A stretch of DNA of 64,000 nt from a virus, in IMG/VR virus record IMGVR_UViG_3300046787_000508, positions 62,001 to 126,000 of that record; one strand, written 5' to 3'. Below, piece by piece: positions 6,748 to 49,799 of the stretch. The notes beneath the pieces were generated by a model. It was not told the DNA's origin. It made no database searches and worked only from the letters and a program-made list of their open reading frames with translations. Made by a program: the position numbers and the translations under genes. Position 1 is the stretch's first letter; each line of letters opens with the position of its first letter.

Positions 6748-6760
6748 CTTCTATTATAGT

Positions 6761-7732: not shown

Positions 7733-7746
7733 ATTTTTATATTTTA

Positions 7747-9129: not shown

Positions 9130-9159
9130 GTTTATATTTGTTTATATTTTCTAAAAAAA

Positions 9160-9603: not shown

Positions 9604-9607
9604 TGTG

Positions 9608-10624: not shown

Positions 10625-10642
10625 TTAAATTTGTTTTATTAA

Positions 10643-11653
10643 TTACTCTTCTTCTGTTACAACTTTCACATCCGCGATGTCTGCAACACTGACACCTAAT
10701 CTTTCACTAATATAATCTCCTGAGATTTTTTTATAGTCTTCGATTGATTTTTTCTCTTCAACATCATCTCTACCTGGCATAAACCCGTGAGATGTTACCA
10801 AGATACGTCCATCCTCATATCCCAAACCATTTACGTGGTTCTTCATAATTGAGATTTTAGTTCTTGTTGCGATTTTAACTTTTCTCTTATCTTTAGTGAT
10901 TGAGATTTTAGTTGTTCCCGCACCTTTTTGGTTACCGAATAAGAATACTAAAGTTGAGTTTAACCAAATGGCTTCACCACCTTTAGCTTTGATTTTTGGT
11001 TGACCGAATGGATTGTCAGGTAATTCTACCCATGGTTGGTTTACAATTACTAATGTGTTTGTATAATCGTTATCTGTTCTTCTTGAACCTGAAATACGTT
11101 GATTCAGACCCATTCCGATTTTATCCGATAATACGGACGCATTATGTTGTTTACCACCTTTACCATCAAAAGTCATTTTACATGGAACAGAACCCACAGA
11201 ATCCCATAAAAACAACATATCGTGAGGAATGTCACCTTTAGCTTGAGCGTCAAGTAATTCGTTAATGTAATCTGTAATTTGTTCTATGTATTGGAAGTTA
11301 TTGTTGAAAAGGAAAAATCCGTCCCAATCAATTGCTCCTGTTTCTTCGTCAACTACTTGTTCACATTCAAAACCCATTAATTTAGCGTGTGGGAAATCCC
11401 ATTTCTGTTCTGTGATGATAAAGACAGGAAGGATTCCTTTCTTTTGTGCATCAACGGCAGTTTTCACTAATGCTGTGGTCTTACCTGTATCTGAGTGACC
11501 AAGTAACATGTTTATGTGTCCCATTGCAGGACCGGGTAACCCCGTTGCTTCCAAGAAAGCGTTACCTAAATCAAAGAATCTTTCAGCTTTGAAAGACGCT
11601 TCTTTAGAGAACTTTTTCTTTAAGGCAGAAAAGTCATTTTTTTTAATTGCCAT
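10643..11653 (-). CDS. uvsX: RecA/UvsX-like recombinase
   Basis: A 336-residue recombinase of the RecA family that would coat single-stranded DNA and carry out strand invasion for recombination-dependent replication and repair. Walker A is GHSDTGKTTALV near residue 49, Walker B is MLFLWDSVGSVP near residue 149, and NTLVIVNQPWVELPDNPFG fits the conserved segment around the L2 DNA-binding loop. Length is near that of T4 UvsX (391) but about 50 residues shorter. It sits immediately downstream of gp32, its functional partner, with a hairpin in the 58-base gap. No uvsY-like mediator gene is recognised in the window. Confidence 0.88.
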   Translation of the reverse strand: MAIKKNDFSALKKKFSKEASFKAERFFDLGNAFLEATGLPGPAMGHINMLLGHSDTGKTTALVKTAVDAQKKGILPVFIITEQKWDFPHAKLMGFECEQVVDEETGAIDWDGFFLFNNNFQYIEQITDYINELLDAQAKGDIPHDMLFLWDSVGSVPCKMTFDGKGGKQHNASVLSDKIGMGLNQRISGSRRTDNDYTNTLVIVNQPWVELPDNPFGQPKIKAKGGEAIWLNSTLVFLFGNQKGAGTTKISITKDKRKVKIATRTKISIMKNHVNGLGYEDGRILVTSHGFMPGRDDVEEKKSIEDYKKISGDYISERLGVSVADIADVKVVTEEE

Positions 11654-11670
11654 GTTGGTTGTTTTAAAAT

Positions 11671-11697
11671 GGAACCCAAGGTGAATCCAAGGGTTCC
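11671..11697 (-). other. Hairpin in the gp32-uvsX gap (attenuator or weak terminator)
   Basis: GGAACCC (11671-11677) pairs with GGGTTCC (11691-11697). On the minus strand the stem is followed only by a short T run (ATTTT), so it may be a leaky terminator that gives more gp32 than UvsX, or an mRNA processing or stabilising element. The structure is seen in the sequence; the role is inference. Confidence 0.5.
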
Positions 11698-11711
11698 TTG
11701 TTGTTTGTTAA

Positions 11712-12575
11712 TTAGAAAGGTAAATCTTCGTCAACTTCCTCGTCGATTTGTGGGTCAACCACAGGTGCCGTAGGTGTTGAAGTTGTAGGTGTTTTAGCTC
11801 CTCCGAAAGTTTCTTCACCTGATGTAGATGAAACATATTTCTTAAGGTCACTATCCCAACGTGGTGCCTCACCTCTTGCCACTAACTCAAGGTAATCTTC
11901 ACTTTTTTGTGAATACACATCAGCCCAAGTCAATTCATCGTTAACCCATGTTTCAGATACAGTTGCATCTGTATGTAATGGACCCATATCTTCAGGGATG
12001 ATTGAGTTAATTGTTGTATATTCTTTTCCTGTTCCCGCTTTACTTAAAGCTAAAGAAAGAATTAAATCACGTCCGTTTTCAGCATTGGTGATATCACCTT
12101 TGTTACGGAAAATAGGGAATACTTTGTCCATGATACCATCACCTTTGTGGTTATGTTTGAATCTCCAAAACTTAACCCCGTCTTGTTCGTTATCACGGTC
12201 AATAACTTTTACGATGTAAAATTTACGAGAACGATAAGTTCTAGCTAATTCTCTATCTGATTCTACACCCGTCATCATTAAACTGTCATAAACTTCGTTT
12301 AATGGTGAACGTTTTCCTTCTTGTTTTGGGTCATATAATTTAACCCATTTACCATCTACTTGTACTTCGTGGAAATACACTTCTTTAAATGGTGATGTAC
12401 CATCTGTAGTTGGTAAAATACGAATACGTCTTTCCTCACCTTTTGAACCTTTAGGTAAAATGGTAGTGAAATAACGTTTTAATCTGTCCTCTTGCGAGAT
12501 TTTTCCTGCGTTGCCACTTGTGGCGTTGTTCTTGTTCTTCTCGTACTGTGCCAGTACTGCATCAAATGTTGACAT
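11712..12575 (-). CDS. 32: Single-stranded DNA-binding protein, T4 gp32-like, without zinc-finger cysteines
   Basis: A 287-residue protein placed like gp32 (301 residues in T4) next to uvsX. The N-terminal basic LAST-like region is represented by ISQEDRLKRYFTTILPKGSKG. An OB-fold core follows (RRIRILPTTDG, VYFHEVQVDGKW, KFYIVKVIDRDNEQDG, VKFWRFKHN) and then a Thr/Pro linker and a strongly acidic tail. Two things are unusual. The protein contains no cysteine at all, so the structural zinc site of T4 gp32 is absent. It also ends in DEDLPF, very like the C-terminal tip of bacterial SSB that recruits host repair and replication proteins. It is the first gene of the replication transcript and follows a strong terminator. 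Confidence 0.85.
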   Translation of the reverse strand: MSTFDAVLAQYEKNKNNATSGNAGKISQEDRLKRYFTTILPKGSKGEERRIRILPTTDGTSPFKEVYFHEVQVDGKWVKLYDPKQEGKRSPLNEVYDSLMMTGVESDRELARTYRSRKFYIVKVIDRDNEQDGVKFWRFKHNHKGDGIMDKVFPIFRNKGDITNAENGRDLILSLALSKAGTGKEYTTINSIIPEDMGPLHTDATVSETWVNDELTWADVYSQKSEDYLELVARGEAPRWDSDLKKYVSSTSGEETFGGAKTPTTSTPTAPVVDPQIDEEVDEDLPF

Positions 12576-17900: not shown

Positions 17901-20656
17901 GGAATAAAATGTGTTGCGCCCACTTCTTTAAAAAGTGTGGATAATCTAACTTCACCAACGGTCGAATTTGTACCTTCTTTAACCACTTCATTTGGTGTTA
18001 TTTTATCATCTAAATCAATAAATGGTAATGAGTTTAATAAGAGATACGCCGAACCGACATACTTTTCGTTTATACCACTCTTTGTAAAATCTTTATAGAG
18101 TTGTTTATGAAAGTACGGTGTGTTTAATATATGTTTTGACAGGGTATTACCTGAAATATCTCTAAAATCCATCGTTTGGGTAAAAAGGTTTTCTTGAAAC
18201 TCTTTTTTCGCCCACATTTTTCCGTTAACAGATGAAGTAACAAATGCCTCATTAGTGTCCACTTTTAACATGTTGTTCAATAACAACTCACTATCTTTAT
18301 ATTCTGTGATATTAAGATACGATAAGTAGGTAGATGAGTTAAACGGATATAATGATAATCTATATGGTTCGGGTTTGTAATTACTTAAATCATAAGATAG
18401 TTTATCGTATTCTCCATCAAAATTTAACGTTTTAGATGTTTGAACATATTTTTCAATAAAAAAATCCTGTGATAATAAATCCTTTATATAACTTACCGTC
18501 GGTAATTGGTCTTGATAATAAGGCCACCTATCGAATGCCGAGAATCCCTTCATGTAAGTTTTTAAACTCTCAACGTCCTTTATATTCGTTTTTAAAATGT
18601 CAATAATGTCATAATCACCTTCAATTTGTGATTTCAAATTTGAAAATTCAATATCCGCCAATTGTTGTATTGTTTGATTACTGAAAGAATTAAATGACGT
18701 AGTGTATTTTGCTCTTTCAAAAATTTCATATAGAACAGATGCAATTGATTTATCATAATACGGTACGTATGGTGATAAATAAGTTAATGTACTAATGTCC
18801 TTTTTACTTAATTTAGCAGTATCGGTTTCAAATGTAAAACTGATACTATCGGGATTACCCTCCTTATTTGCCAATGGGTCCGATTTTTTTGTTGACACTT
18901 GGTAGAAATTCTCAACGAAGTCTACTTCAGGCCAAAGATTTCTATCATTGGATTGTAACTTTCCAACCATATCTTTACTACCTGGGTATACTAAAACTGA
19001 ATTTTTACCCCCTGCGGTTTGTTTTTTCACTTCCGGCCAAGGATATATATCATCACCAATACTATCGGTCGATATATTTTTTAATAAATCTTTTCTAACA
19101 TTCGAAGCTTCAAACGCCTTGTAATGTACATCTCGTAATAATCGAATGTAAGCATCGGCGTTTGCAAGAATAACACCAACAATATTTCTTATTGTAGGTT
19201 CAAATCCAATTCCAAGAGTACCATCACTAACGATTGCATTCATTTTCTTTTCGATATTCAATTCAAGTTTGTTTCTTTGTTCAACAAAATCTCTTTGAAT
19301 GTCATAAAGGGTTTCTAATAAGTCATCAATATTAACCCCTACTTTATCTTTAGTTCTATAAAAGTTTTTTAAATTCTTTAATCTCCCAAATGATACAGGA
19401 TGAATATCAAAGTCTAACTTACGTAATAGTTTCTTATCTCTATTTTCACCGAAAGCCTCGTTTTGACTTAATTTATCTGAGTAATTTTTAATAATGGTTT
19501 CTAAAGTTCCTGATGTGGTTGAACCTGTGATAGTTGTTAGTTCAGTCTTTTTGTTGCCCGCTAATTCGTGCCATCTTTTAAAGTAGGTTGTACCATCAGG
19601 TTTTTGAGTTGGAATATCGTCCTCCTCATATACCGCCGATAGATGTTTCGATTTCCAACCGATAATTGCGTTTTCAAATGTCGTTATTGTATCTTCAAAA
19701 TTTTTAATACCTGCAAGTACTTTATGGTCAATAATTTTTGAGAATAATTCCTTTTCTAAAATACTGTTTAATCTACCGGCAATAACAATTACTTCCCTCA
19801 ATGTTCTTGGTGGGAAGTCTTTGGGTAATAATCCTTTATTTATATATTCTTGATAAACCGATTTTAATATACTATAACCTTTTGTTGATTTTGTAACTTT
19901 CTTATCTTGTAATTTGGTATTACCATTAATGTTTCCATCGGTTGTTGTTTCAGTTAAAAACATATATGGTGCATCTAAAATACCTTCCAACGGAATGTCC
20001 GAAAGATAAGCATGAGTTGACCCAATAAATGATGTTGTTACTTCAAAGTTACCATTGGATGAATTATATCTTGAATTAAACTTAACTAAGTGTAATCTGT
20101 ATCTTATCGCCTTACCGTAAAATCCTTTTACCGTTAGATAAAATATTGGCCATGGTAAATGAAAGAATGCTTGATATGGTGAATTTTCAGGTGATTCAAA
20201 TAATGTCTTCCCTCTTACATCAACAAAATTAATGGTAACCCTAGGTACCGCATTGGCACCTGTAATGTCAATTTTTATATTGTCTATACCGAAACCCTGA
20301 CCTGAAGTATCTGACATGATAAAATCATCGTCAATTTTTTTTGTTGCACTATTTTGTTTAATCTCAGTATATGTTTCGGTCCAAGTCGAATCAAAATCTT
20401 TTCCTTGGTTACTCATCATATTGAACGTACCCTTTGCAATTGAAGTAAGAGTGTTTCGTTCATTACCTGACACAAGTATTGAACGGGGAATTAAATCCGC
20501 CTCTAAGTTAACATACATAACCAAATTTTCAGGTTGTATGTCTCTTGGCGATATTTCTCCATTAGATACTACAGTGTTAGGGTCGATAAACATTAAGTTG
20601 TTTTGGTCAACCTTTACTAATATATCATTACTTTTTTTTAAATTATTGTTCCCCAT
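14906..20656 (-). CDS. Giant baseplate hub-region protein (1916 residues), gp27-like segment near C-terminus
   Basis: At 1916 residues this is the largest gene in the window. The N-terminal 250 residues look like a phage structural beta domain (IKIDITGANAVPRVTINFVD; YQAFFHLPWPIFYLTVKGFYG; LHLVKFNSRYNSSNGNFEV). The central thousand residues are mostly helical and unassigned. Near residue 1640 the series YTCDVTSLGNVMIQPTMYF, LKNIPLFRGSYWITEVSHNI and IETSFKGTRIP matches the hub fold shared by T4 gp27 and late-control protein D, where it surrounds the spike. A GTP-free, small C-terminal domain follows (NGYGIGMSKALLDKL). It overlaps the gp53-like gene by 14 nt. I infer a hub or wedge scaffold that fuses several T4 baseplate roles. 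Confidence 0.7.
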   Translation of the reverse strand: MGNNNLKKSNDILVKVDQNNLMFIDPNTVVSNGEISPRDIQPENLVMYVNLEADLIPRSILVSGNERNTLTSIAKGTFNMMSNQGKDFDSTWTETYTEIKQNSATKKIDDDFIMSDTSGQGFGIDNIKIDITGANAVPRVTINFVDVRGKTLFESPENSPYQAFFHLPWPIFYLTVKGFYGKAIRYRLHLVKFNSRYNSSNGNFEVTTSFIGSTHAYLSDIPLEGILDAPYMFLTETTTDGNINGNTKLQDKKVTKSTKGYSILKSVYQEYINKGLLPKDFPPRTLREVIVIAGRLNSILEKELFSKIIDHKVLAGIKNFEDTITTFENAIIGWKSKHLSAVYEEDDIPTQKPDGTTYFKRWHELAGNKKTELTTITGSTTSGTLETIIKNYSDKLSQNEAFGENRDKKLLRKLDFDIHPVSFGRLKNLKNFYRTKDKVGVNIDDLLETLYDIQRDFVEQRNKLELNIEKKMNAIVSDGTLGIGFEPTIRNIVGVILANADAYIRLLRDVHYKAFEASNVRKDLLKNISTDSIGDDIYPWPEVKKQTAGGKNSVLVYPGSKDMVGKLQSNDRNLWPEVDFVENFYQVSTKKSDPLANKEGNPDSISFTFETDTAKLSKKDISTLTYLSPYVPYYDKSIASVLYEIFERAKYTTSFNSFSNQTIQQLADIEFSNLKSQIEGDYDIIDILKTNIKDVESLKTYMKGFSAFDRWPYYQDQLPTVSYIKDLLSQDFFIEKYVQTSKTLNFDGEYDKLSYDLSNYKPEPYRLSLYPFNSSTYLSYLNITEYKDSELLLNNMLKVDTNEAFVTSSVNGKMWAKKEFQENLFTQTMDFRDISGNTLSKHILNTPYFHKQLYKDFTKSGINEKYVGSAYLLLNSLPFIDLDDKITPNEVVKEGTNSTVGEVRLSTLFKEVGATHFIPYHLILKWGSIYHRYKKFITEGVDIISGTTETINVPLFFDAMSGRTYTLNNGQTVTQSSNDFGICPFYQSVFHQIVNGYTYYNLITGATSFSAAINNNVILLEGQPITGGKRWTTFIDNSKFTKTDTRYTLLPSNGRRYLYNDSSDFEKQNNFRTLWGIDSLPMGEKPINYSGQTLPTYSQYHKTITNKYSISSNYKKIIDLIAVFKSDILDTFEDAFLDFASGKINEEIPYKPYNVKYSKFQDLLKEIVSVKKGVNNPTDINELIPLLITEQTNNLKYITNELLSNENLIKLTLGNPREINNYVLGGFTGIDNQTFSVNEFNASQLTDNLDNIKLFLGEDISGDYLNFFVNNNIELSEDNIKQFRSIIHIYAGYIQNLKNEYIRLNPTDVNYNSFVYPPKSAFINYLSVNLISGPVNPVTNVSTMNDRLSLFLTRFVSKIQKELEVKKGTQVLNIVNGYNDDPVKLELYNYFKSFNDKWIAGNSIGQRGLLEEFLFIDKANKDIGDKVFLDMERLVNLVDKKNDKINLYSALSLLIQDSGFDMRALPAYVNFYGTNFTNKKKITPTKKVAESLFGTFLEVDYQESSPKIILQYIGPTSKHLELSDINKKYKYKDDSFNVGDPNNNPILVANDAFLNTDYSKANKVVAFEVSFGDQNQSMFKSVQLDQSSIKNTSESFKIMERLGQQETGSSTAQIDIGLFDIYRQSSYTCDVTSLGNVMIQPTMYFYLKNIPLFRGSYWITEVSHNIRAGNIETSFKGTRIPIQSLPNPEDSFLASYRSLFDKLVKKAVTRVKSENLQLQNAKGTEKVIQNEEGTFTIDISSKTPIKGEELVNQTNYKEYGIPFNGKDGEKYVQLITLNKEEWLRANVVQMGGKNYPIADDINMSYVSKLNKSIDTPILLKWSDIKDNKQMYYSTKFNVGKATPDFVVDKFKKTEFLNPTANIRYTLDTNINVTNKKYEGPVNVGPSINGYGIGMSKALLDKLKLFDGDIVYFKMTE

Positions 20657-20969
20657 AATATAGTTTATACAGTTCTATGTTTTTTCTATAATCTTGTAAG
20701 GACGGAACAAGTGGAAATGGAATCCTCATAACAAAGTTATTAGGTATTTCAAATTCGATTCCACCCGCAGTTGGGTTGGCCTGTAAAATTAACCAACCAA
20801 ATAACGGTGTGTCATAATATTCTTGTGACATCTTATCCAATCTATCTTTATTTTTTTTAAATTGAACGTATTTGTCTGTTGACTTAATAGGTAATTCAAT
20901 TCCCGGTACAATTTTAAAATTACCGTCTTCCAAAAAATATTGGTATCTATCTATGTATTGACTATTCAT
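20643..20969 (-). CDS. 53: gp53-like / LysM-like baseplate protein
   Basis: A 108-residue protein in which YVQFKKNKDRLDKMSQEYYDTPLFGWLI, quoted here by its parts KDRLDKMSQEYYDTP and LFGWLILQANP, followed by FEIPNNFVMRIPFP, reproduces the pattern of T4 gp53 and small LysM-like tail proteins. The pattern is a helix, then YxxPxxxWxIxxxN, then a hydrophobic strand ending in IPxP. gp53 clamps neighbouring wedges in the T4 baseplate. The gene is locked between the two giant genes: its ATG overlaps the stop of the 1585-residue gene by 1 nt, and its own stop overlaps the start of the 1916-residue gene. This suggests the three products are made in fixed ratio. Confidence 0.7.
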   Translation of the reverse strand: MNSQYIDRYQYFLEDGNFKIVPGIELPIKSTDKYVQFKKNKDRLDKMSQEYYDTPLFGWLILQANPTAGGIEFEIPNNFVMRIPFPLVPSLQDYRKNIELYKLYYGEQ

Positions 20970-23900
20970 TATCTTACGTAATTTAATGTATCAGTTGATT
21001 TCACTTTTCCTGTGGTGTTCACTTTTACTAATTGTTCCTTTTGTGTATCATTAAATGTAAAGGTTTCATTTGTAATATTAAATGAAACTTTATTACTATC
21101 CTTCTGAATTGGGTATTTTTTTACTTTTAAATCCTTTTCTTTTGGTGTAACCATAAATTTATTAAGTCTTTTTTCAATATCAGCTAAAATCCTTTTTGTA
21201 AAAATGGTTTCATCTTTCGTGTATAATCCCTTTATTTCCTGTATTGAATCTTTCAATAGAATTGATAGGAAATTCGTCATATCTTCGGTTGTCATTGTGG
21301 ACGTACTTTCAAAAATATATGAATCATCTAAATCTTCATAAAATTTACTTTGTTTATCACGTATGAATTTTATGTTGTTGTCATATTTTGAATAGAGTTT
21401 ATCATAGGTAAAACCAGATAATTCAGCACCAATGTATTGGTCCTTATCTACTTTACCGTCATGACCCGTTTCAACTAAGAAATTTACCTTATCTAAAGTT
21501 AAAATTAAATCGTTTCTACTTTTTTCAATGTCAACAATCGATTTATTACTTGAGAACGTGTCAATCATTTCACTAACTTTTTTAATAATGAATGGTTTTA
21601 AAATCTCTTCCGATTTCTTAACAACAGGTTCCGTCATATCTCTATCAAACTTAAACATTTCGGTCATACTTTCACTTTCAATTTTACTAATAAAAATTTG
21701 TTTGAAGTCATTAGCCATTACCGATAGTTCTTTATTTTTTACATAATCACCGAATAACTGAATTGTTTCAGTACCCGCACCTGTTTGTACCGTATAGTTT
21801 CTTATTGTTCTATATGTTGGTGATAGGAACATCGATGATAACGTATCCCCATATTGTTTAACAATGTTATTATACCCCGTAATATACGTTTTAGTATAAT
21901 TCTCGGTATCCTTAAACACTTGTTTTACTAAATCTGTGTAATCTAAAGTTTTATCATTTAAAGTTCCAATGTATTTCCCTTCAGTTACTTTATTGGTTTG
22001 TGTTAATGCATCAACCGCGTTTGGTTTTACTTCTGAAGGTTTAGATAAATTTAAAGTTTGTAAAAACTCTTTTGTAAATTTACTTCTATCTTCAGTTGCC
22101 GTTGCTCTTGGGTCATACACTTCACTATTTGCAAAGAAATTGGAAGATAACGCGTTCTGTAATCTCTCCACAGGTTTTTCCATACCTTGTCCACCAATAA
22201 AACTAATACTCAATGTAGCGGTCGCAATCATTGGTTGAACTCCGATACCTTCAGGATTTAAATCCCATGTACCTTCGTCAAATGAGAAGTTCACGTCACG
22301 GATAATAATTTTTGAGTGGTAGAAATCACCAACTCTCAATACACAAATAGGTGGAGGACCAAATGTAGTGTTTCTCGCATTTATATCACTCTCATCTGAT
22401 ATTCCTTTAATGGGTATAGTGTCTCCGGGTCTAATACATTGTTGTAAAAATGTTAGACGTGAGTTTAAACCCTCAGGTGTTGTTGAGTGGAAACCAGGGT
22501 GAAAGTATCTTAACTTTTCTTTTAACGAGTTAAATTGAACCGGTGAATCTTCCTCTAAAATTTTAAAGTAATGACATTCAGAAAGAACTTTCATTACAAT
22601 ATTTTTAAGTGGGTCAATACTTGGTTTTCTATCTTTCGCTTTTGGTTTTTCCTCGTATGGTACCAATCTTGTTTTAGGAACCTCAGTTATAGATGGTGGT
22701 GGTGTCGTTGCCGGTACATCCGGTGGTTTAACCGAATAGTTAACCTCAAATGTTGTTTCTCTACACCAAAATGTTATCGGTGCAGTTCTTTTAAGGTCAT
22801 TTGACGTTGTTACCAATTTATTATCACTACAATCGACATTTTTATGACTACCGATTGAACCGTTTGTTAATTGTTCACCAATATTTGAAACATATTCAAT
22901 TGTAAATTTACCTTCATTGTCAGTATATCCGAAATCTTTTAAAGATATTTCAATTGCACTTTCTTTAGCTGACTTATCTTTAGTTGTTACAACGTTTTTC
23001 CATTTAACTTTATCTAAAGCGGTTGTTGTTCCGTCTTTAGATATTTTTGTAATTAAATCGGTAATAATACTATAACTTCTTCTGTATGCTAATTTTAAAT
23101 TATAATTGTCGTCAGCAACCGCAGATGTGGTTGATGATAGTTTAATTTTAATATCTTTAACTGTTTTATCTGTTAATCCCTTTTTAAGTTCCTCATACTT
23201 TTCATTTACTTTAGGGTATGTCGTACTTAACTCATTAAATGCATCATCTATCTGTTTTTCAACTTCAGTTTTTAATGCCGGTACTTCAGATATGTTTGGT
23301 TTTGTTGGCGATTCTTTTCCAAATAAAATTTTATAATCTTTTTTAGATTTTGGTCCCCACGTACCGTTAACCAATAAGTTATCTAAACCTTGGTTTAATT
23401 CTTTTTTATATTCACCTTCCTTTAACAACATGTAATGGTCAAACTCTTTTTGGTATGTTGTGTCAGAATATAAATCACCTTTAGAACTACCTTTTGTTGG
23501 GTAATCGTTAGGGAAATATAACGTCGCTGAAAAACTCTTAGGGTCTGTTTTATTTGGGTCGGTATTTGGTACCGCACCTCCATTATCAGGTGTTCCAGGA
23601 TTTTCAATTGGGTCTGTTACACTTGTAAATTGTGTAATTGTTTGTGGGTCGTTATTTCCATTTAAAAATGCCTGTATTGTAGTAATATCTGTTTGACTTA
23701 AAGTTACATACTTTCGAATCAAATCGTAAAAATCTACGTCTTGACATCCCGCAAAAAACGCATTAATGTAATTTTCAGACTCCTCATCTGACATCCCTTT
23801 AAAGTGTTCTCTTACCAATAAGTTTAATACACTTGGGTGGTCAACAACAATCTTAAAACTAATTTGTCCCGTTCTTTCAGTATTTTGATACGTGTAAACA

Positions 23901-25726
23901 GGTTCAGGTCGACCTAAGAAAGTGTTAGTTTCCCACTTAGCACTGTTGTTCTCACTAATTTTTAAATCATAAGGTGGGAACCACATAACACGACCTCCGT
24001 TTGGGCCTCTTTCACAATATGGTAAATCGTTATAACTAAATCCAGGTAAGTTAGATGTTTTCCAAGCTAAGTTTTCAATAGAAAACATGTATTTTTTTGC
24101 ATAAAATCCGTCACCTTTACCTTTAACGATATTTGATTCGGGTCCAAAGTCTTTGTTTCCATTAGACATTGGCGCGATATTCAAGTTCCACGGTTTGGTT
24201 AAAACGCTACTACCGTACTTTCTAATAAGTCCAGTTCTTTTCATGGTGTCAGAATTGTTCATATAAGACCTATCCTTGGTCCAAACTCTACAATACTCAA
24301 TTCCACCTTCCTCTTTAGTAAACTTGTCAACATACTTAACTGCAGACCCTCTGGACATCATTGTATCACCTTCCTTAAAGATTCTACTTGTTTGGTCGAT
24401 AACATTCGCAACGTGTGAACGTGCTGCAGCTCCATTCGTTGGCATTGAATCAAGAATATCCTGAGTCGTGTCTAATATTGACCCATTTCTAAAGTTATAG
24501 TTAGTTGATAAACTTTCCGAAAATTGTGATTTCTCACTTGGGAACTCTTTGTTACCGACTCCTAATTTATTTTTTGATGAACGACTAATCCACGTTAATT
24601 TACCTCCAATTCCTCCACCTTCAGAAATATTTCGTTTTCTTCCAAATAAATCCGCCTGTATTGGGTCGAACATAACACTAAGATAGTAATTGCTTCTAAC
24701 TGGTCTATCATTAAAGTCATTCATTGCATATTTTACATCATCACTTCTATCGTCACCAATATATGCATATTTTGTTGGTGCCTCGACACCTAAAACGTTT
24801 TTAACACCTTGAGCTAAATTATCAATAAAATTAAATAATTTAGATGAATTTTGAGACCTTGCTGTTGTCGTGTAGTTTGGTCCGTATTTTGAATATGATA
24901 AATTATCAAATAACGCAATTTTTTGTCCCGAACCAAGATATTCAATCATTAAATCTGAAGGTTTCCTTGAAACTTTTGGCCTTCTATCAATACCAATTAA
25001 AGAACCCAATGCTCCCGTTACGTCTTGGTATATTTTACCTAACTCAGTTTTTGCCTCAGGTCTATAGTTTACCGGATTTCTTGGGTTAGATAAGTAATCG
25101 CCAGGTATTTCCGACCATGGAAATTCAACACCCACGACTGTTTGTACAAAATCAATTGCTTTACCCGGTAAAGTTTTTGCTACGGTTATTTTCGTATTAC
25201 CTTCAACAAGTGGTTCTCTACCTGTAATAATATTAATCGCTGTAGTTGTGTTTCCTTGTAATGCGTCTATTAATCTTACTCGACCAACAGTTGCTGCGTA
25301 TAAGTTTTGTTGTATTCTCGCTAATAATGGACCTTGTGGGTCTGTTTTAATATATGATGACGCAAATTTGAACAATTCAGATTCATTATCATAATTTGAT
25401 GTGGTTAATATACCAATTAAATTATGGTCTTGGTCTCTTTCAAAATATGGGTATAAATTTAAGTTTGCTCTTCTTGGTAATGTGTTGATACCATCTCTAA
25501 CCGAATATTGTAATGGTTTAAAAATGTTACCATTTTGTGTGTTAACCAAATATTGTGGTAAATTATTCTCTACAGTTCCAGGGTCAACGTTTGACATGTT
25601 ACTTAAAGATTGAACAGCATAATTTGAAGAACTACTAGTCTGAGGACCATTAGGAGATTGAAGAGTCTTACCCAAAATGTAATCTCTAAAGTTTTTTGTA
25701 GTATCGAAATCTAAGTAACTTGGCAT
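20969..25726 (-). CDS. Giant baseplate protein (1585 residues) with an inserted OmpA-like domain
   Basis: The protein begins with an unassigned region. Between about residues 540 and 690 it shows a structural segment seen in baseplate proteins of large T4-like phages (NGGRVMWFPPYDLKISE, FLGRPEPVYTYQNTER, then a beta domain ending in VDHPSVLNLLVREHFKG). A second part of the same kind follows near residue 1120-1200 (PPPICVLRVGDFYHSKIII and NPEGIGVQPMIATATLSI). Between them, residues about 735-1000 look like an OmpA C-terminal domain: SATLYFPNDYP, then DNYNLKLAYRRSYSI, which lines up with DxYNxxLxxRRA of OmpA, then a closing strand near ITFWCRETTFEVNY. OmpA domains bind peptidoglycan. A box CTATTTATC lies 15 nt before the ATG. 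The baseplate role is likely; the OmpA call is tentative. Confidence 0.7.
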   Translation of the reverse strand: MPSYLDFDTTKNFRDYILGKTLQSPNGPQTSSSSNYAVQSLSNMSNVDPGTVENNLPQYLVNTQNGNIFKPLQYSVRDGINTLPRRANLNLYPYFERDQDHNLIGILTTSNYDNESELFKFASSYIKTDPQGPLLARIQQNLYAATVGRVRLIDALQGNTTTAINIITGREPLVEGNTKITVAKTLPGKAIDFVQTVVGVEFPWSEIPGDYLSNPRNPVNYRPEAKTELGKIYQDVTGALGSLIGIDRRPKVSRKPSDLMIEYLGSGQKIALFDNLSYSKYGPNYTTTARSQNSSKLFNFIDNLAQGVKNVLGVEAPTKYAYIGDDRSDDVKYAMNDFNDRPVRSNYYLSVMFDPIQADLFGRKRNISEGGGIGGKLTWISRSSKNKLGVGNKEFPSEKSQFSESLSTNYNFRNGSILDTTQDILDSMPTNGAAARSHVANVIDQTSRIFKEGDTMMSRGSAVKYVDKFTKEEGGIEYCRVWTKDRSYMNNSDTMKRTGLIRKYGSSVLTKPWNLNIAPMSNGNKDFGPESNIVKGKGDGFYAKKYMFSIENLAWKTSNLPGFSYNDLPYCERGPNGGRVMWFPPYDLKISENNSAKWETNTFLGRPEPVYTYQNTERTGQISFKIVVDHPSVLNLLVREHFKGMSDEESENYINAFFAGCQDVDFYDLIRKYVTLSQTDITTIQAFLNGNNDPQTITQFTSVTDPIENPGTPDNGGAVPNTDPNKTDPKSFSATLYFPNDYPTKGSSKGDLYSDTTYQKEFDHYMLLKEGEYKKELNQGLDNLLVNGTWGPKSKKDYKILFGKESPTKPNISEVPALKTEVEKQIDDAFNELSTTYPKVNEKYEELKKGLTDKTVKDIKIKLSSTTSAVADDNYNLKLAYRRSYSIITDLITKISKDGTTTALDKVKWKNVVTTKDKSAKESAIEISLKDFGYTDNEGKFTIEYVSNIGEQLTNGSIGSHKNVDCSDNKLVTTSNDLKRTAPITFWCRETTFEVNYSVKPPDVPATTPPPSITEVPKTRLVPYEEKPKAKDRKPSIDPLKNIVMKVLSECHYFKILEEDSPVQFNSLKEKLRYFHPGFHSTTPEGLNSRLTFLQQCIRPGDTIPIKGISDESDINARNTTFGPPPICVLRVGDFYHSKIIIRDVNFSFDEGTWDLNPEGIGVQPMIATATLSISFIGGQGMEKPVERLQNALSSNFFANSEVYDPRATATEDRSKFTKEFLQTLNLSKPSEVKPNAVDALTQTNKVTEGKYIGTLNDKTLDYTDLVKQVFKDTENYTKTYITGYNNIVKQYGDTLSSMFLSPTYRTIRNYTVQTGAGTETIQLFGDYVKNKELSVMANDFKQIFISKIESESMTEMFKFDRDMTEPVVKKSEEILKPFIIKKVSEMIDTFSSNKSIVDIEKSRNDLILTLDKVNFLVETGHDGKVDKDQYIGAELSGFTYDKLYSKYDNNIKFIRDKQSKFYEDLDDSYIFESTSTMTTEDMTNFLSILLKDSIQEIKGLYTKDETIFTKRILADIEKRLNKFMVTPKEKDLKVKKYPIQKDSNKVSFNITNETFTFNDTQKEQLVKVNTTGKVKSTDTLNYVR

Positions 25727-25767: not shown

Positions 25768-27654
25768 CTAATTGGCATTAAGGTATGAACCCTTAATTTG
25801 ACCTTGGAAGTACGCATCGTTGAACATTTCTCTCATAATACCATCGGTTAATGTGTTATTTGATGTTATTTTTAATTCCACTTCTTTTTTCTCAATTGGT
25901 TTTTCAGTAACTTTTTGTGTTTTATCTTCGGTTTTCTTAATTTCCTCTTTAGTGTTAATTGGGGTTGTTTTACCTGTAACAGTACCTTTTTGATTTGATT
26001 CTTTTGTACTTGAAAATACATCTGTCGCTATCGTTCTAATAACATTGGCGGTGTCCTCAGTCCCCTTAGCTACTTTGTTAGCAATTTCTTTTGATTCGAT
26101 TGCCATTTTCATTGGGTCAAATCCCAATTGTTTTACTAAACTATCACCTAATTTACCTGCCTCAACTCTTGCCTTGGCGGCGATAAATGATACATCACGA
26201 TTAATGTTCTCAATTGCACTAACTTGTTTTGTTGCAATTTCCTCTGCTGACATTTTCTTAAACGCCTCTCTTTGGTTTAATAGAATATTTTTTTGATTGT
26301 CACTCATGGATTCTAATGCCACGGTACTACCTCCCAATTGGTCTTGTAAACTTTTTGGTACTTCAATTACCATTTTACCGTCTTTCATTTGAGCCATGTT
26401 AGTAAGGAATTCTCTATCATCATCCTCCATCACTAACCCTGTTGACATTAATTCACTAGCCGCAGACATTCTTTGAGCCGAATTAACCGCTAAATCAGAT
26501 AATTGTTTAAAATCTTGTCCGGTAGCACTTGCAATTGCTCTTACTTGTCTTAAATTTGCTCCTGTTACTTCAAATCGACCTGTTTGTTGGTTGAACGTTG
26601 CTAAACCTTTAACCGTTCCGGCTAATGCATCTTGTAAACCATTCATATCGTTGGTTGTCATATACATTAATTTAAGAGGGTCGTTCATTGCACCAAATGC
26701 TCCTCCAACTGCCGATAATTGTGCCGCCAATTCCATTGCCCCTTCGGGTTCAAATGCTTTATCGGCTAAAGCGGTGACCATCGAGAAGTCCATTTTTAAT
26801 GATTGTGCCTTCTGAGCCATTTTGGTTAAACCTTCAATTCCATTTTTGAAACCATATTGATTTAACAATCCTATATTTTGACCAACCTTACTGATTGTTT
26901 CTTTTGAATTTAAACCTAACTCTAGTGAACTTTTACTTGCATCTTGGATATAGTCCATTGTATCTTTAACGCCCATGGAAACTCTTTGAAAATCGTTTGC
27001 CATTTGTGCGGCACCTGACATTCCCCCCTCAACAAACTTACTTGATAGTTCCATATCACGAATAGTATCGGCATTGACTAATCTAAATCTACCTGAATCG
27101 GCAACTAAACTTGTCATTGTTTGTGATAACTCAGAAAAAGATATTCCTAATCTTTGAGCGTCAGGATATGCTTCGGTAATTTCTTCTCTAAATGCTTTAG
27201 ATAATTCTCCGGTCATCATTGTTCCCGAATTAATATCTTGTAATAAAGCGTTTTGTTGTTTGTAGTTGTCAACTAATGCGGTACCGGCTTGTGAAACCGC
27301 ATCTTTTGCTATGTCACCTAACGATTTTAATTTATTATTCGCATCGAATAACATATTAATCGCAGTTTCAATTGTTGCATTCTCACTTGTTGAACCGTAA
27401 TCTTTTCCTGATTGACTTTTTAACCCCTCTCTTACCGCTTGTAAAATACCCTTTGGTGCACTTGACGTTGGTCCACTTGTTGTGGTTGTTGGGTTAGATG
27501 ATGTACTTGGAGCAACACTATTATCGGTTGTTCTATAAAAGTTATACGCAGCCGACATATCCGATACACTTGCGTTCGGATTTGTCTTTTTATATTCGTT
27601 AAAAAATTCGGTTTGCCTTCCCGATTTGGCGAGTTGGGATAATTTATCGTTCAT
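25768..27654 (-). CDS. Tape measure protein
   Basis: A 628-residue, strongly helical protein in the position of the tail length ruler: after sheath, tube and chaperones and before the baseplate genes. The N-terminus is a short helical region with a Ser/Thr/Pro linker (residues about 48-70). Then come long amphipathic helices (LFDANNKLKSLGDIAKDAVSQ, given here as LFDANNKLKSLGDIAKDA) and repeats of the tail-ruler type (MAQKAQSLKMDFSMVTALAD, ELAAQLSAVGGAFGAMNDP, ASATGQDFKQLSDLA). A Lys/Glu/Thr-rich C-terminal part follows. Length is close to that of T4 gp29 (590 residues), so the tail is probably of similar length, near 100 nm. No lysozyme or peptidase domain is visible. A CTATTTATA box sits 4 nt before the ATG. 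Confidence 0.8.
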   Translation of the reverse strand: MNDKLSQLAKSGRQTEFFNEYKKTNPNASVSDMSAAYNFYRTTDNSVAPSTSSNPTTTTSGPTSSAPKGILQAVREGLKSQSGKDYGSTSENATIETAINMLFDANNKLKSLGDIAKDAVSQAGTALVDNYKQQNALLQDINSGTMMTGELSKAFREEITEAYPDAQRLGISFSELSQTMTSLVADSGRFRLVNADTIRDMELSSKFVEGGMSGAAQMANDFQRVSMGVKDTMDYIQDASKSSLELGLNSKETISKVGQNIGLLNQYGFKNGIEGLTKMAQKAQSLKMDFSMVTALADKAFEPEGAMELAAQLSAVGGAFGAMNDPLKLMYMTTNDMNGLQDALAGTVKGLATFNQQTGRFEVTGANLRQVRAIASATGQDFKQLSDLAVNSAQRMSAASELMSTGLVMEDDDREFLTNMAQMKDGKMVIEVPKSLQDQLGGSTVALESMSDNQKNILLNQREAFKKMSAEEIATKQVSAIENINRDVSFIAAKARVEAGKLGDSLVKQLGFDPMKMAIESKEIANKVAKGTEDTANVIRTIATDVFSSTKESNQKGTVTGKTTPINTKEEIKKTEDKTQKVTEKPIEKKEVELKITSNNTLTDGIMREMFNDAYFQGQIKGSYLNAN

Positions 27655-27671: not shown

Positions 27672-27854
27672 TTAATCGTTTCCACTTTCAATTTCTATCA
27701 AGTATTGAACGTAATATCGTCTAACATAAACAGGCATTGAGATAATATCTGAGTATGAGAATCCTCTTTTTACTAAATATAGTATCTCATCGAGCTGACC
27801 TTTCCTATAATCCGTAGAAAGGGCGAAAAAACTCAACCCCGAATCCAACTTCAA
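27672..27854 (-). CDS. Tail assembly chaperone C-terminal part, gp51-like, probably made by +1 frameshift
   Basis: This frame overlaps the end of the 249-residue chaperone gene by 50 nt and continues to 27672. It has no ATG: its first possible start is a TTG at 27854. It encodes LDEILYLVKRGFSYSDI followed by MPVYVRRYYVQYLIEIE, the same pattern as the second half of tail assembly chaperones (helix, then MPxxxRRxYxxxL) and T4 gp51. In the overlap the upstream frame reads TTT TTT CGC (27831-27823). Slipping +1 there converts TTT to TTC, both read by the same tRNA, and enters this frame. I therefore read it as the extension of a fused product of about 293 residues rather than a free-standing gene. 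Confidence 0.65.
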   Translation of the reverse strand: MKLDSGLSFFALSTDYRKGQLDEILYLVKRGFSYSDIISMPVYVRRYYVQYLIEIESGND

Positions 27855-28554
27855 CTTGGACTATATCTCCTGACGGGGTGGTTACATCTTTAGTCAAATT
27901 TAATCCAGGTTTAATATCTGAAATAAACTTTCTAAAGTCTTGGGAATCTTTTATTGGTAAACGTTCGATTAAATTTCGTATCTCCATTTGGTTTCTATTA
28001 CCACCGATAGATTTAATCATCATTTCAAGTTTTTTTGTTACGATTGGTGCAATACCATTACCGTTCCAACTATCTTTGATTTTTTGAAGTTCGTCTTCTT
28101 GTTTTTGTGTTAAAAAGGTAAATGTAATATCAACCTTACTTTTTTCAAAATAATAAGGATATTCATTATTAGCATCCGCAACTAAATTGAATTCTTTAAT
28201 CGGTACATTTGATAAATCAACCACTGCAGTAAACTGTTCGTTTGTTTTTGGGTCGGTAATCGTCATATTGTATTCAGAGCCGAAAGCGGTGTTTCTTAAA
28301 AAAATTAAGATTGCTTGTCTATCTTCTTCAACAATATCATCAAATTTTAAATCGTGGTCCAAAACTTTTCTGTTGATTAACTCATTAACAACTGTGTTTG
28401 TTGCGATTAAATTTGGGGATGCTAAGATATTTTCGTCTGCGGCAGTTAAGTAAGCCACCTTGACAGATTTTTTACCACTTGGGTAATGTAAACCTCGACT
28501 TGGCAGTTCCACCACGTCATAGGCAATCGTTGGGTCTATTCTAAATTCTTCCAT
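27805..28554 (-). CDS. 26: Tail assembly chaperone / baseplate hub protein, T4 gp26-like
   Basis: A 249-residue protein. The N-terminal pattern VVELPSRGLHYPSGKKSVKV then YLTAADENIL and VVNELINRKVL matches the T4 gp26-like family, whose typical entry is LPSxGxxYPxG followed by MTAxDE. DRQAILIFLRNTAFGSEYNM and a small beta domain follow, ending in an unusual last segment VGFGVEFFRPFYGL that lies over the slip site. In many tailed phages the gene pair before the tape measure makes a short and a frameshifted long chaperone, and position and overlap here fit that scheme. It is separated from the tube gene by a terminator-like hairpin, so it may have its own promoter in the AT-rich gap at 28555-28600. 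Confidence 0.72.
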   Translation of the reverse strand: MEEFRIDPTIAYDVVELPSRGLHYPSGKKSVKVAYLTAADENILASPNLIATNTVVNELINRKVLDHDLKFDDIVEEDRQAILIFLRNTAFGSEYNMTITDPKTNEQFTAVVDLSNVPIKEFNLVADANNEYPYYFEKSKVDITFTFLTQKQEDELQKIKDSWNGNGIAPIVTKKLEMMIKSIGGNRNQMEIRNLIERLPIKDSQDFRKFISDIKPGLNLTKDVTTPSGDIVQVEVGFGVEFFRPFYGL

Positions 28555-28674: not shown

Positions 28675-29163
28675 TTAGTAAACTTGAATACATCTATCCA
28701 TTCTTAACGATGCATCGATTGTTGCTAAATCGTCTTGAGAATAGTTCAAATCACCGAAGTTCAAACTTGTTAAGAAACAACCTTGAAGTATCCATTTTTC
28801 AACAACTACTCCCGTTGGGTCTAACATTTCGAGTTCAACGTCCTTTTTGTATCCAGCAGCGTATCCCATACGACCTGTTACTGATTCTGCGTGTAAACGG
28901 AACCATTCCATAAGTGCTTGAGACGCAGAGGGACCAATTGGGTCTTTGAACGTTACTTTTATCTCTTCCCAATCAAAACGACCTGCAACGTATGTTGAAG
29001 TGTTCAAGAAAGGAATTTCCACCGATTTAATCTTAGCACTTGGACGAGATGTTGATGTCACGTACCATTCGTTAATTCCCAATGATGAAGGGAATCTAAG
29101 AATAAATCTATTTTTACGTTTCGGTTCATAAGGAACCGGCATTTTCATTAGTAAATCTGCCAT
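28675..29163 (-). CDS. 19: Tail tube protein, gp19-like
   Basis: A 162-residue protein, the same length as T4 gp19 (163), which stacks in hexameric rings to form the inner tail tube. Family features are PYEPKRKNRFILRFPSSLGI at the N-terminus, the strand-loop IKSVEIPFLNTSTYVAGRFDW, quoted by its parts IKSVEIPFLN and YVAGRFDWEEI, KVTFKDPIGPSASQALMEW, and the closing beta segment LQGCFLTSLNFGDLNYS. The gene follows the sheath gene, as in T4-like phages, but a 312-base untranslated stretch lies between the two. It has its own GATATATTTATA-like box 37 nt upstream and a terminator behind it, so it is a monocistronic unit as expected for a very abundant protein. Confidence 0.92.
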   Translation of the reverse strand: MADLLMKMPVPYEPKRKNRFILRFPSSLGINEWYVTSTSRPSAKIKSVEIPFLNTSTYVAGRFDWEEIKVTFKDPIGPSASQALMEWFRLHAESVTGRMGYAAGYKKDVELEMLDPTGVVVEKWILQGCFLTSLNFGDLNYSQDDLATIDASLRMDRCIQVY

Positions 29164-29475: not shown

Positions 29476-32301
29476 TTAGATATTTTCAAATGATGCTCCT
29501 GTTGGAGTAATAATGAATTCAACATCTATAAATTCAAGTGAACGAGTAGGTTTGATGTAAATTTTTCCTCTCAATGTGTTTGCATCGATGTCCTCAGGGT
29601 CATTAGATACACTTACACGGAAGTCATATAAACCTCTTTCTTTCTTGATAGCCTCAAGAATTGGGTTAACCAATCTTAAGAATTCATTTCTTACTTGTTC
29701 ATCGTTTTGTTCAAACAATAATCTAACCGCAACTGCTGAAATTAATTTTCTTGCTCTTAATAACAATCTTCTTACGTTGATTCTATCTAAAGCAGATTCT
29801 CTAACTTGTAACGTTTTGTTACCCCAAATAATTGTACCTGTATCAGAGAATGTAGCGATTGGGTTAATTCTGTTTTTATATAAACTATCTCTTTCGTCAA
29901 GAGTTAATTTCTTTTGAGCTTTAATTGCGTTTACCAAACCTCTTGAGTAACCCGCTACTGCGAACCATGGGTAAGAAACATTATCAGTTAATGCGATGTT
30001 TTTCAAAACCTCACCTGTTGGTGGAAGGAATAATTGAGTTGCATTGTCATTATCTCTTACTTGAATCCAAGGCCAATATGTTGCTGAATAGTTACTATCC
30101 AAAGAAGCTGTGTCCAAATTGTCAATTGCCTCATCAGCAGATGTTACATTTGGAGAAGCCACGATGTAAAGTGAATCCGCTCTATCGTTCTCAATCATAT
30201 CAATTGCTGCGGTTGTTAATGAACCGTGGTCAAAGAAGTTAATACCAGGAGTTGCAAATACGTTAATATCTACAGCTTCAGGGTTTGAGAACGTTTCAAT
30301 ACCTTTAGTGTAAGCGTAGTAATCAGAATTACCAAAGTTTACATTAAACACACCACCGTTGTTAGTGTTATTTGCGGTGTAAGTTGACTTACCAAATATA
30401 AATGAATCTGTGTTAGTTCTATTTTTTTGGTAGATATCCCAACCGTCAAATCCTCCAAACACTGCGAATGTGAATTTACGTGAAGCTAAAGTATCTAATT
30501 TTCCTTTATTAGTTCCCTCTAAATCGTAAGGTGTACAATCATAAGCAAAACCTGTAATTGTATTACCTGTAATTGAAGATGCATTTGTTGATAAGTGGAA
30601 ACCTGGCGTTACTTTGTCAGGATTAACTCCCTTGTATTTTAAAATGTCCTTATCAAAACCAACTTTAGATGATAAACCTAAAGATACTTTTTTGATTTTA
30701 TCTCCTGATTCAACTGTACCAAATGAATTGTATGCTGCTAAATCAACGATATCACCCGCATCGTGGTATTGTGTTTTGTAAATTACTGAACCTAATGTTG
30801 TTCCACTAATAGTGTCTGTAACGAAACCTTTAAAACCTGCAGGAATTGCGTCCGTAGGGTGACCGTCAGCCAATACCAATGTAATGAATTTTGAACGTAA
30901 TTCATATTCACCATCAGATGTACCGATTTTTCTACCGATATAACCTGGTTTATCTAAACTCATTGAACATCTAGTGTATTTTTCCAATACAACCATATTG
31001 TCGTCAGTATCGTTGAAATCACGAACTAATACATCAAATTCACCTTCTTCTAAGTTAATGTTCACGATTGAGATTTTTACTTGGAAGTTTGCCATCTCAC
31101 CGTCTGAAATTGTTTGGATTTGGAATAAGTCAGCAACATTACCACCTCGTACTTCAGAAACCACCATAGGTGATATTGTAGTATCAAACTCAGCAACGAA
31201 ATCATTACCAGTTGAATGGTAAACCTCATCTAAACTAATTCCTCTAACCAATCCTCTACTATATAAAGTTTGGATTAAATTAGGGTAAATTTCATGAACA
31301 TACATTGGATACTCGTCCATATCTTTATCAAATACATCTACACCTAATACTTTAGTGATATATTTTGTTGACGTGTTATCTAATGAACATGTGTATGTTT
31401 TAGTAGATGTACCTGAAGATATAGATACTTCAAATTCCCCTAAAATGTTAGTGTTAACACTTGTTGAATTGATAGTAAACCCACTATTATTTGTTACTTT
31501 TAGATTTAATGTACTACCCGCGTATTCACCTCTTGACCTTAAAGCTGCAACGGTAATATTGTTGTAATCATTAACAGTTGCACCTGTATAGTTAAATTTA
31601 GTTACATTGAACGTGTTCGATGCTCCTGAATAAACAAAAAGGTAAGAATTTAATCCGTTAACGACACCACCACTAGTCGTGTAGTAATCATTTGACCATC
31701 TATAATCAGTTGCGTCACCGATTGGTCCTGTTATTTCTGTTCCTGATAGTGAGTTAGTTTCAGAATCAGGTACGAAACCGATTGTGAACCAATCATTATT
31801 GGAATATGTACCACCCACAATGAATTCAGTTACACTGTCACCTGTTGTTGCAGTTTTACCTGATAATAATGAGTAGAATGTACTTCCTGTTACTCCTGTA
31901 ACGGTTGGAATTAATGTCCCTGTAGTATCTACAGGTGTTGACGTAGCATCAAATGTGACACTACCTAATGTTTTAAGACCAAATGTTTTATTTGGTTTAT
32001 AACCCGTTAATCCAAGTACTCTTGTTACGAATAGTTGGTTTGATTCTTGAAGATAAGATTTTGCAACATAAGGTAATTCATATTTTGGGTTACCATTACC
32101 GTATTTCAAAGGTGATGTGGTACCAAAATATGTCTTAAATTCGTCGAAATTTGTAATCAATACAGGTTCGAAAGCGGGACCTTTTAAAGTCTCACCTACT
32201 AAACCTAATGTTGTTACTCCGACACTTTGTGCAACAAATGTTAAATCCTTCTCTGAAGTGTAGACCCCTGGAGAAACGAATACTCTGTTTGAATTTGCCA
32301 T
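29476..32301 (-). CDS. 18: Contractile tail sheath protein, gp18-like
   Basis: The sheath surrounds the tube and contracts to drive it through the host envelope. The N-terminus (RVFVSPGVYTSEKDLTFVAQ) and the following VGVTTLGLVGETLKGPAF are typical of sheath subunits. The C-terminal 105 residues (from about 837) hold the conserved interlocking domain: INVRRLLLRARKLISAVAV, LLFEQNDEQVRNEFLRLV, and the strand series RGKIYIKPTRSLEFIDVEF. At 941 residues it is far longer than T4 gp18 (659). The extra length is in the surface-exposed middle (about residues 100-560), which is rich in Gly, Ser and Thr and probably forms added beta domains. It is followed by a terminator and preceded by a GATATTTATT box 36 nt upstream. 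Confidence 0.93.
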   Translation of the reverse strand: MANSNRVFVSPGVYTSEKDLTFVAQSVGVTTLGLVGETLKGPAFEPVLITNFDEFKTYFGTTSPLKYGNGNPKYELPYVAKSYLQESNQLFVTRVLGLTGYKPNKTFGLKTLGSVTFDATSTPVDTTGTLIPTVTGVTGSTFYSLLSGKTATTGDSVTEFIVGGTYSNNDWFTIGFVPDSETNSLSGTEITGPIGDATDYRWSNDYYTTSGGVVNGLNSYLFVYSGASNTFNVTKFNYTGATVNDYNNITVAALRSRGEYAGSTLNLKVTNNSGFTINSTSVNTNILGEFEVSISSGTSTKTYTCSLDNTSTKYITKVLGVDVFDKDMDEYPMYVHEIYPNLIQTLYSRGLVRGISLDEVYHSTGNDFVAEFDTTISPMVVSEVRGGNVADLFQIQTISDGEMANFQVKISIVNINLEEGEFDVLVRDFNDTDDNMVVLEKYTRCSMSLDKPGYIGRKIGTSDGEYELRSKFITLVLADGHPTDAIPAGFKGFVTDTISGTTLGSVIYKTQYHDAGDIVDLAAYNSFGTVESGDKIKKVSLGLSSKVGFDKDILKYKGVNPDKVTPGFHLSTNASSITGNTITGFAYDCTPYDLEGTNKGKLDTLASRKFTFAVFGGFDGWDIYQKNRTNTDSFIFGKSTYTANNTNNGGVFNVNFGNSDYYAYTKGIETFSNPEAVDINVFATPGINFFDHGSLTTAAIDMIENDRADSLYIVASPNVTSADEAIDNLDTASLDSNYSATYWPWIQVRDNDNATQLFLPPTGEVLKNIALTDNVSYPWFAVAGYSRGLVNAIKAQKKLTLDERDSLYKNRINPIATFSDTGTIIWGNKTLQVRESALDRINVRRLLLRARKLISAVAVRLLFEQNDEQVRNEFLRLVNPILEAIKKERGLYDFRVSVSNDPEDIDANTLRGKIYIKPTRSLEFIDVEFIITPTGASFENI

Positions 32302-44933: not shown

Positions 44934-49799
<4,866 letters not shown>

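What the first reader, a model, noticed from the sequence alone, without database searches (positions are those of the whole stretch)
22700..23540. OmpA-like peptidoglycan-binding domain inserted in a giant baseplate protein
Seen: residues about 735-1000 of the 1585-residue protein contain SATLYFPNDYP, DNYNLKLAYRRSYSI and closing strands in OmpA order, between two halves of a baseplate domain. DNYNLKLAYRRS aligns with the DxYNxxLxxRRA helix of OmpA, though the preceding Asp is Ser. Inference: the baseplate may grip the cell wall during injection. This would fit the absence of a lysozyme domain in the gp5-like protein.
Basis: partly seen in the sequence, partly recalled or inferred. Interest (0 to 1): 0.6.

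Follow-up and report, generated by a model that had tools for sequence, protein, structure and literature searches.

The report
OmpA-like domain inside phage baseplate protein
A family of uncultured large contractile-tailed phages carries, spliced into a tail-tip protein, a copy of the fold that bacteria use to hold on to their cell wall, so the tail may dock on the wall during injection, although the usual wall-binding acid is replaced by serine in every relative.

Summary
The 1585-aa protein (window 20969-25726, minus strand) contains an autonomous OmpA-C-like domain at residues ~729-1000 (22727-23542).

Evidence: AlphaFold2 gives the OmpA strand/helix order with an added helical hairpin. 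The top Foldseek hits in the PDB are almost all OmpA/Pal/PorE domains (individually weak). Profile-profile score to bacterial OmpA is 44, against a maximum of 21 in 100 shuffles. The domain interrupts a conserved domain: two anchor motifs lie 526 residues apart here, but 62 and 61 apart in the syntenic proteins of Flavobacterium phage immuto and Microcystis phage Mel-JY01. It is present in all 80 sequences that reach it, in conserved tail-gene order.

Peptidoglycan binding is plausible but unproven. Pocket Asn, Leu and Arg are invariant at ~29% domain identity, but the mDAP-binding Asp is invariantly Ser. That does not by itself exclude an OmpA domain: GYASPEG...YN (Asp to Ser) OmpA proteins are common in Bacteroidota and Ser occurs in Cellulophaga and Maribacter phage OmpA proteins. 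The missing-lysozyme argument is weak: no gp5-like protein was identified.

Most likely: a phage-adapted OmpA module that lets the baseplate contact the wall stem peptide. New context for a known domain.

The parts
20969..25726 (-). 1585-aa tail-tip/baseplate-cluster protein that carries the domain
   Evidence: ORF; 43 + 80 related loci; conserved gene order
23657..24109 (-). left half of the interrupted conserved domain (residues 540-690)
   Evidence: homologous to Flavobacterium phage immuto 716-aa and Mel-JY01 2255-aa proteins
22727..23542 (-). OmpA-C-like insert domain (residues 729-1000)
   Evidence: AlphaFold2, Foldseek, hhalign, Pfam on relatives
23516..23539 (-). first strand (residues 730-737), followed by the invariant N740 and P743
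   Evidence: DSSP of model; conservation
23171..23455 (-). enlarged helical part between first and second strand (residues 758-852), much longer than in bacterial OmpA
   Evidence: DSSP of model
23132..23161 (-). second strand (residues 856-865)
   Evidence: DSSP of model
23078..23125 (-). OmpA signature, residues 868-883: Ser868 (Asp position), Tyr875, Asn876, Leu879, Arg883
   Evidence: S, N, L, R invariant in 80 of 80, Tyr 84%
22886..22966 (-). two further strands (residues 921-928 and 940-947)
   Evidence: DSSP of model
22763..22831 (-). bulge with invariant Cys966 and Cys988 and two short helices, as in the disulfide bulge of E. coli OmpA
   Evidence: conservation, model, E. coli OmpA alignment, PMC7192894
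22730..22759 (-). last strand (residues 990-999), next to the invariant Arg989
   Evidence: DSSP of model
22127..22591 (-). right half of the interrupted conserved region (residues 1046-1200)
   Evidence: about 80% identical among relatives; weak co-linear match to immuto and Mel-JY01
20643..20969 (-). gp53-like baseplate wedge protein, next gene
   Evidence: phrog_7145 E 3.6e-4; matches immuto and Mel-JY01 counterparts
25768..27654 (-). 628-aa protein in the tape-measure position
   Evidence: gene order
27805..28554 (-). T4 gp26-like baseplate hub protein
   Evidence: PF12322 E 1.8e-10, phrog_150 E 2e-12
28675..29163 (-). tail tube protein
   Evidence: phrog_4542 E 5.7e-28
29476..32301 (-). 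tail sheath protein
   Evidence: phrog_23 E 5.5e-61

Best explanation
The 1585-aa protein is a tail-tip (baseplate/tube-initiation) component of a large contractile-tailed phage. Into one of its conserved domains a divergent OmpA-C-like module has been inserted. When the tail penetrates the envelope, this module docks on the host peptidoglycan through a pocket that keeps the OmpA Asn, Leu and Arg but has Ser for the diaminopimelate-binding Asp, and thereby steadies or positions the baseplate at the wall. Shown here: the fold and homology, the insertion, conservation of the pocket, and the gene context. Inferred: exposure of the domain, binding to the stem peptide, its role in injection, and a Bacteroidota host.
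For: Fold: AlphaFold2 strand/helix order; 16 of the 18 best PDB matches are OmpA/Pal/PorE-type domains. Sequence: PF00691 matched by 5 of 29 members, best 7e-4; hhalign score 44 vs shuffled maximum 21. The insert is modelled confidently even where the flanks are not. Insertion: anchor distance 526 residues versus 62 and 61 in two isolated phages. Selection on the pocket: 4 of 5 contact positions invariant in 80 sequences at 29% median identity, 16 of 267 positions invariant, hypergeometric P 4e-5; contact positions taken from PorE with bound stem peptide (PMC7192894). Context: tube, gp26-like, ORF628, this gene, gp53-like, ORF1916 kept in about 87-110 loci; among 80 domain-only hits each baseplate flank is present in 79. 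The Ser form is natural: GYASPEG...YN OmpA proteins, mostly in Bacteroidota, and Ser in four Flavobacteriia-phage OmpA proteins.
Against: The Asp that hydrogen-bonds diaminopimelate is never present, and the Glu of the bacterial GYASPEG variant is not present either. Foldseek E-values are individually weak (best 0.058). The Pfam gathering score is not reached. No binding data exist; a virion-internal scaffold role would give similar conservation. Two isolated phages with the homologous domain do without the insert.
Confidence: 0.5

Rival explanations
1. The OmpA-like fold has been recruited as a structural module of the tail tip (trimer or hexamer contacts, spacing of the tube initiator) and no longer binds cell wall; the conserved residues hold the fold or a contact with another virion protein.
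For: Invariant loss of the ligand Asp; invariant residues are also found outside the pocket, e.g. D797, G933, G939, G950, E951, L978, R989; the domain lies inside a protein of the assembled tail.
Against: The pocket Asn and Arg are kept as well as the fold; purely structural reuse would be expected to let pocket side chains drift at 29% identity.
Confidence: 0.3
2. The domain binds an envelope ligand other than the canonical stem peptide, such as a modified stem peptide, a periplasmic protein or a surface structure, so it is a receptor- or envelope-recognition module of the baseplate.
For: Asp to Ser changes the most specific contact; high divergence of the insert (23-41% identity against about 80% in the flanks) resembles host-adapting parts; Ser-type OmpA domains are widespread in Bacteroidota.
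Against: The divergence spares the pocket itself; no candidate ligand was found.
Confidence: 0.15
3. Chance motif: the resemblance to OmpA is accidental.
For: No Pfam match for the window member alone; weak Foldseek E-values.
Against: Shuffled-profile control, fold order, agreement of four methods on the same residues, invariance in 80 relatives.
Confidence: 0.05

Closest known systems
OmpA C-terminal-like domain (PF00691; OmpA, Pal, MotB, PorE 6TOP)
   Same: Strand/helix order, signature YN..L..RR helix, Asn and Arg of the ligand pocket, bulge with two short helices before the last strand, Cys pair placed as in E. coli OmpA
   Different: Asp is Ser; much enlarged helical part after the first strand (about 270 residues in all against roughly 120); inserted in a phage tail protein; below the Pfam gathering score
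Bacteroidota GYASPEG-type OmpA proteins
   Same: Ser at the Asp position, same spacing to YN, L and R
   Different: The phage domain lacks the PEG; the bacterial ones are cellular proteins, not tail-protein inserts
Free-standing OmpA-domain proteins of Cellulophaga phages phi14:2, phi17:2, phi4:1 and Maribacter phage Molly
   Same: Phage-encoded, Ser at the Asp position
   Different: Separate 330-340-aa proteins, not inserted in a baseplate protein
Flavobacterium phage immuto 716-aa protein (QQO92153) and Microcystis phage Mel-JY01 2255-aa protein (WWT39329)
   Same: Same gene position, homologous interrupted domain
   Different: No OmpA insert; anchors 62 and 61 residues apart
T6SS TagL peptidoglycan-binding domain (PMC8253398)
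   Same: Works like: OmpA domain tied to a contractile injection machine
   Different: TagL is an inner-membrane protein anchoring the firing cell's own machine; here the domain would contact the target cell
LysM-like domains of phage baseplates (T4 gp53, P2 gpX; from memory)
   Same: Works like: a wall-binding type of fold built into a baseplate
   Different: Different fold; the window has a separate gp53-like gene next door

Membership tests
OmpA C-like domain (PF00691) | Pfam gathering score (27.2 bits) | tested here: not met
   No match for the window member; 5 of 29 relatives match at E<=1, best 7e-4; whole-record search finds none
OmpA C-like domain (PF00691) | OmpA fold (strand-helix-strand-helix-strand-strand order) | tested here: met
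   AlphaFold2 order and Foldseek ranking; individual E-values weak
OmpA C-like domain (PF00691) | profile homology beyond chance | tested here: met
   hhalign score 42-44 vs shuffled maximum 21, mean 12
OmpA C-like domain (PF00691) | Asp binding diaminopimelate | tested here: not met
   Ser868 in 80 of 80
OmpA C-like domain (PF00691) | Asn and Arg of the ligand pocket | tested here: met
   N876 and R883 in 80 of 80
OmpA C-like domain (PF00691) | non-covalent peptidoglycan binding | not testable with these tools
   needs a sacculus pull-down or a structure with ligand
GYASPEG-type OmpA of Bacteroidota | Ser at the Asp position with the same spacing to YN | tested here: met
GYASPEG-type OmpA of Bacteroidota | PEG following the Ser | tested here: not met
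   residues 869-871 are AVA, ALA, EVA and similar
T4 gp48/gp54-type tube initiator (for the host protein) | profile match to a named baseplate family | tested here: not met
   no Pfam or PHROG match to a named baseplate family; flanks modelled with low confidence
contractile-tail baseplate gene cluster (for the host protein) | position between the tape-measure-position gene and the gp53-like gene | tested here: met
   conserved in about 87-110 loci and in two isolated phages

The most novel reading that the evidence does not exclude
A whole lineage of large phages has built a Bacteroidota-style, Ser-type OmpA module into the tail tip as a cell-wall sensor or anchor with altered ligand specificity, possibly with a Cys pair that closes only in the oxidising periplasm, so that contact with the wall positions the tube or gates injection.
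Probability: 0.2. Interest if true: 0.75.

Novelty: new variant of a known kind. Interest (0 to 1): 0.5.

Why it matters
How contractile tails cross and hold on in the periplasm of Gram-negative hosts is poorly known outside a few models. A wall-binding fold integrated in the tail tip of a widespread uncultured phage lineage would be another solution beside LysM-like baseplate domains and tail hydrolases, and it is directly testable with a 280-residue construct. It also draws attention to the Asp-to-Ser OmpA variant of Bacteroidota, whose ligand I did not find described.

Tried and rejected
Chance match: rejected by shuffled profile controls and fold agreement. Search for the protein in annotated phages: no tblastn match. 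Search in bacterial genomes: no relative. Naming the host protein by Pfam/PHROG: nothing. Folding residues 540-1240 to see the two halves pack together: flanks came out with low confidence (mean pLDDT 53), so the model could not show it; used only to show that the insert folds on its own. BFVD fold search: no significant match; the Cellulophaga phi17:2 OmpA protein appears only as a weak hit, E 3.9. Apparent broken ORF in L043: scattered frameshifts across the locus, read as sequencing error and left out. Six relatives without the motif are truncated ORFs that end before or at it. Literature search in open-access papers found no report of an OmpA domain in a phage baseplate protein; subscription papers were not covered.

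Full report
What was claimed. An OmpA-like peptidoglycan-binding domain sits in a giant baseplate protein at 22700-23540, with the key Asp changed to Ser.

Observation. The ORF is 20969-25726 on the minus strand, 1585 aa. The named motifs start at residues 733 and 873, and the changed Asp is Ser868. The window lies in a 202,894-base virus record. Forty-three related loci were found with the single protein, and 80 loci were returned of 183 confirmed with the profile; some contigs recur between the two scans. None was found in 50,697 annotated phage records by tblastn or in GTDB contigs. Among relatives, residues 551-650 and 1051-1200 are about 80% identical to the window protein, while 701-1050 falls to 23-41%: a fast-changing stretch between conserved flanks.

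Is it OmpA-like? Pfam on the window sequence alone gives nothing, and the record does not ring for PF00691. Scanning 29 relatives, OmpA is matched by five, best E 7e-4, the best E-value of any family. A profile search of PDB sequences puts OmpA-domain proteins among the weak top hits, best E 0.04, aligned on the same signature. Profile-profile comparison gives score 42 against a small mixed OmpA set and 44 against 42 GYASPEG-type bacterial sequences; one hundred column-shuffled versions of the latter gave at most 21, mean 12, and the reversed profile 11. AlphaFold2 on residues 712-1046 (mean pLDDT 78.5, pTM 0.74) gives strand, helical hairpin and long helix, strand, signature helix, two strands, two short helices, last strand, which is the OmpA order with an enlarged helical part after the first strand. 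Foldseek against the PDB ranks PorE first; 16 of the best 18 chains are OmpA/Pal/PorE-type domains and the other two belong to Legionella Dot/Icm outer-membrane complexes. No E-value is below 0.05. These lines agree on the same residues, so I take the fold as established at about 0.9.

Is it an insert? Two isolated phages show the same gene order. Flavobacterium phage immuto has sheath, a tube-sized protein, hub subunit, tape measure, a 716-aa protein, a gp53-like protein, and a 938-aa protein with a VanY domain; Microcystis phage Mel-JY01 has sheath, tube, 290 aa, two short ORFs, 1348 aa, 2255 aa, 111 aa. Their 716-aa and 2255-aa proteins are homologous to the left part of the window protein (hmmsearch 1.6e-7 and 9.8e-7 in a ten-protein set; hhalign 1e-6), and more weakly to the right part in co-linear order (10 and 3 of 1000 shuffles reach the score). 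The anchors GRPEPVYTY and VGDFY are 526 residues apart here and 62 and 61 there. The insert was modelled mostly at pLDDT 70-90 even in a construct whose flanks failed. Among 80 domain-only hits the left flank is present in 79 and the right flank in 79, the exceptions being short loci.

Pocket. In PorE bound to a stem peptide, Asp576, Asn584 and Arg591 make side-chain contacts with diaminopimelate, and Tyr583 and Ile587 pack on the peptide (PMC7192894). The same offsets here give Ser868, Asn876, Arg883, Tyr875 and Leu879. In 80 sequences S, N, L and R are invariant and Y is 84% conserved; only 16 of 267 domain positions are invariant (hypergeometric P 4e-5 for four of five; the sequences are related, so this is indicative). 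Median pairwise identity is 29%. So the pocket is under selection, but its acid is gone. That is not peculiar to this phage. A scan for a degenerate GYASPEG...YN pattern found 118 stretches, mostly in Bacteroidota by record title; all 80 loci returned carry it in an open frame, most continuing as L...R, and the two tested match Pfam OmpA. OmpA proteins of Cellulophaga phages phi14:2, phi17:2, phi4:1 and Maribacter phage Molly also have Ser. I did not find a study of what Ser-type domains bind.

Cysteines. C966 and C988 are invariant and sit where E. coli OmpA has its disulfide bulge (bulge described in PMC7192894). Whether they pair is not known.

Mechanism. Shown: fold, insertion, pocket conservation, gene context. 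Inferred: surface exposure, stem-peptide binding, role in injection. I put the docking model at 0.5, a purely structural role at 0.3, and another envelope ligand at 0.15.

The lysozyme argument. No Phage_base_V domain was found in the record and no Phage_lysozyme; a gp25 wedge gene is at 3774-4226, an M23 peptidase lies at 177.8 kb of the record, and no VanY was found.

Lineage. A 2025 paper describes aquatic jumbo 'moraphages' with predicted Bacteroidota hosts (PMC12619734). Whether this phage belongs there was not tested.

Noticed in passing
L250:25592-32359 (Microcystis phage Mel-JY01): The homologous 2255-aa protein has a long N-terminal array of imperfect repeats (around YFDI.NR.T..GFH.FAQLYDTKYIPESSIFDWDGKR..AP) ahead of the conserved C-terminal domain; annotated only as hypothetical.
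   Followed up: no
L251:25233-28049 (Flavobacterium phage immuto): The protein after the gp53-like gene ends in a VanY carboxypeptidase domain; no VanY match was found in the window's record.
   Followed up: partly
window 44934-49799 (-): 1621-aa virion-type protein with many long [13 protein letters not shown] linkers, a repeated NDLTYxxIP motif, and a C-terminal part matching virion structural protein families.
   Followed up: no
window 38308-41205 (-): DNA polymerase whose only matches in annotated phages are 18 records (Salinibacter, Nostoc/Anabaena and a few others) at about 22-30% identity.
   Followed up: no
window 4315-12575 (-): Replication and nucleotide genes (RNR large and small subunits, DnaB-type helicase, 5'-3' exonuclease, UvsX-like, gp32-like) lie between the gp25/gp6-like wedge genes and the other tail genes on the same strand.
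   Followed up: no
L124, L126, L127, L128: Free-standing OmpA proteins of Flavobacteriia phages all have Ser in place of the diaminopimelate-binding Asp, as in Bacteroidota GYASPEG proteins.
   Followed up: partly
L332 (record G000:C1:177801-178094, outside the window): M23 peptidase gene of about 232 aa, a possible endolysin.
   Followed up: no
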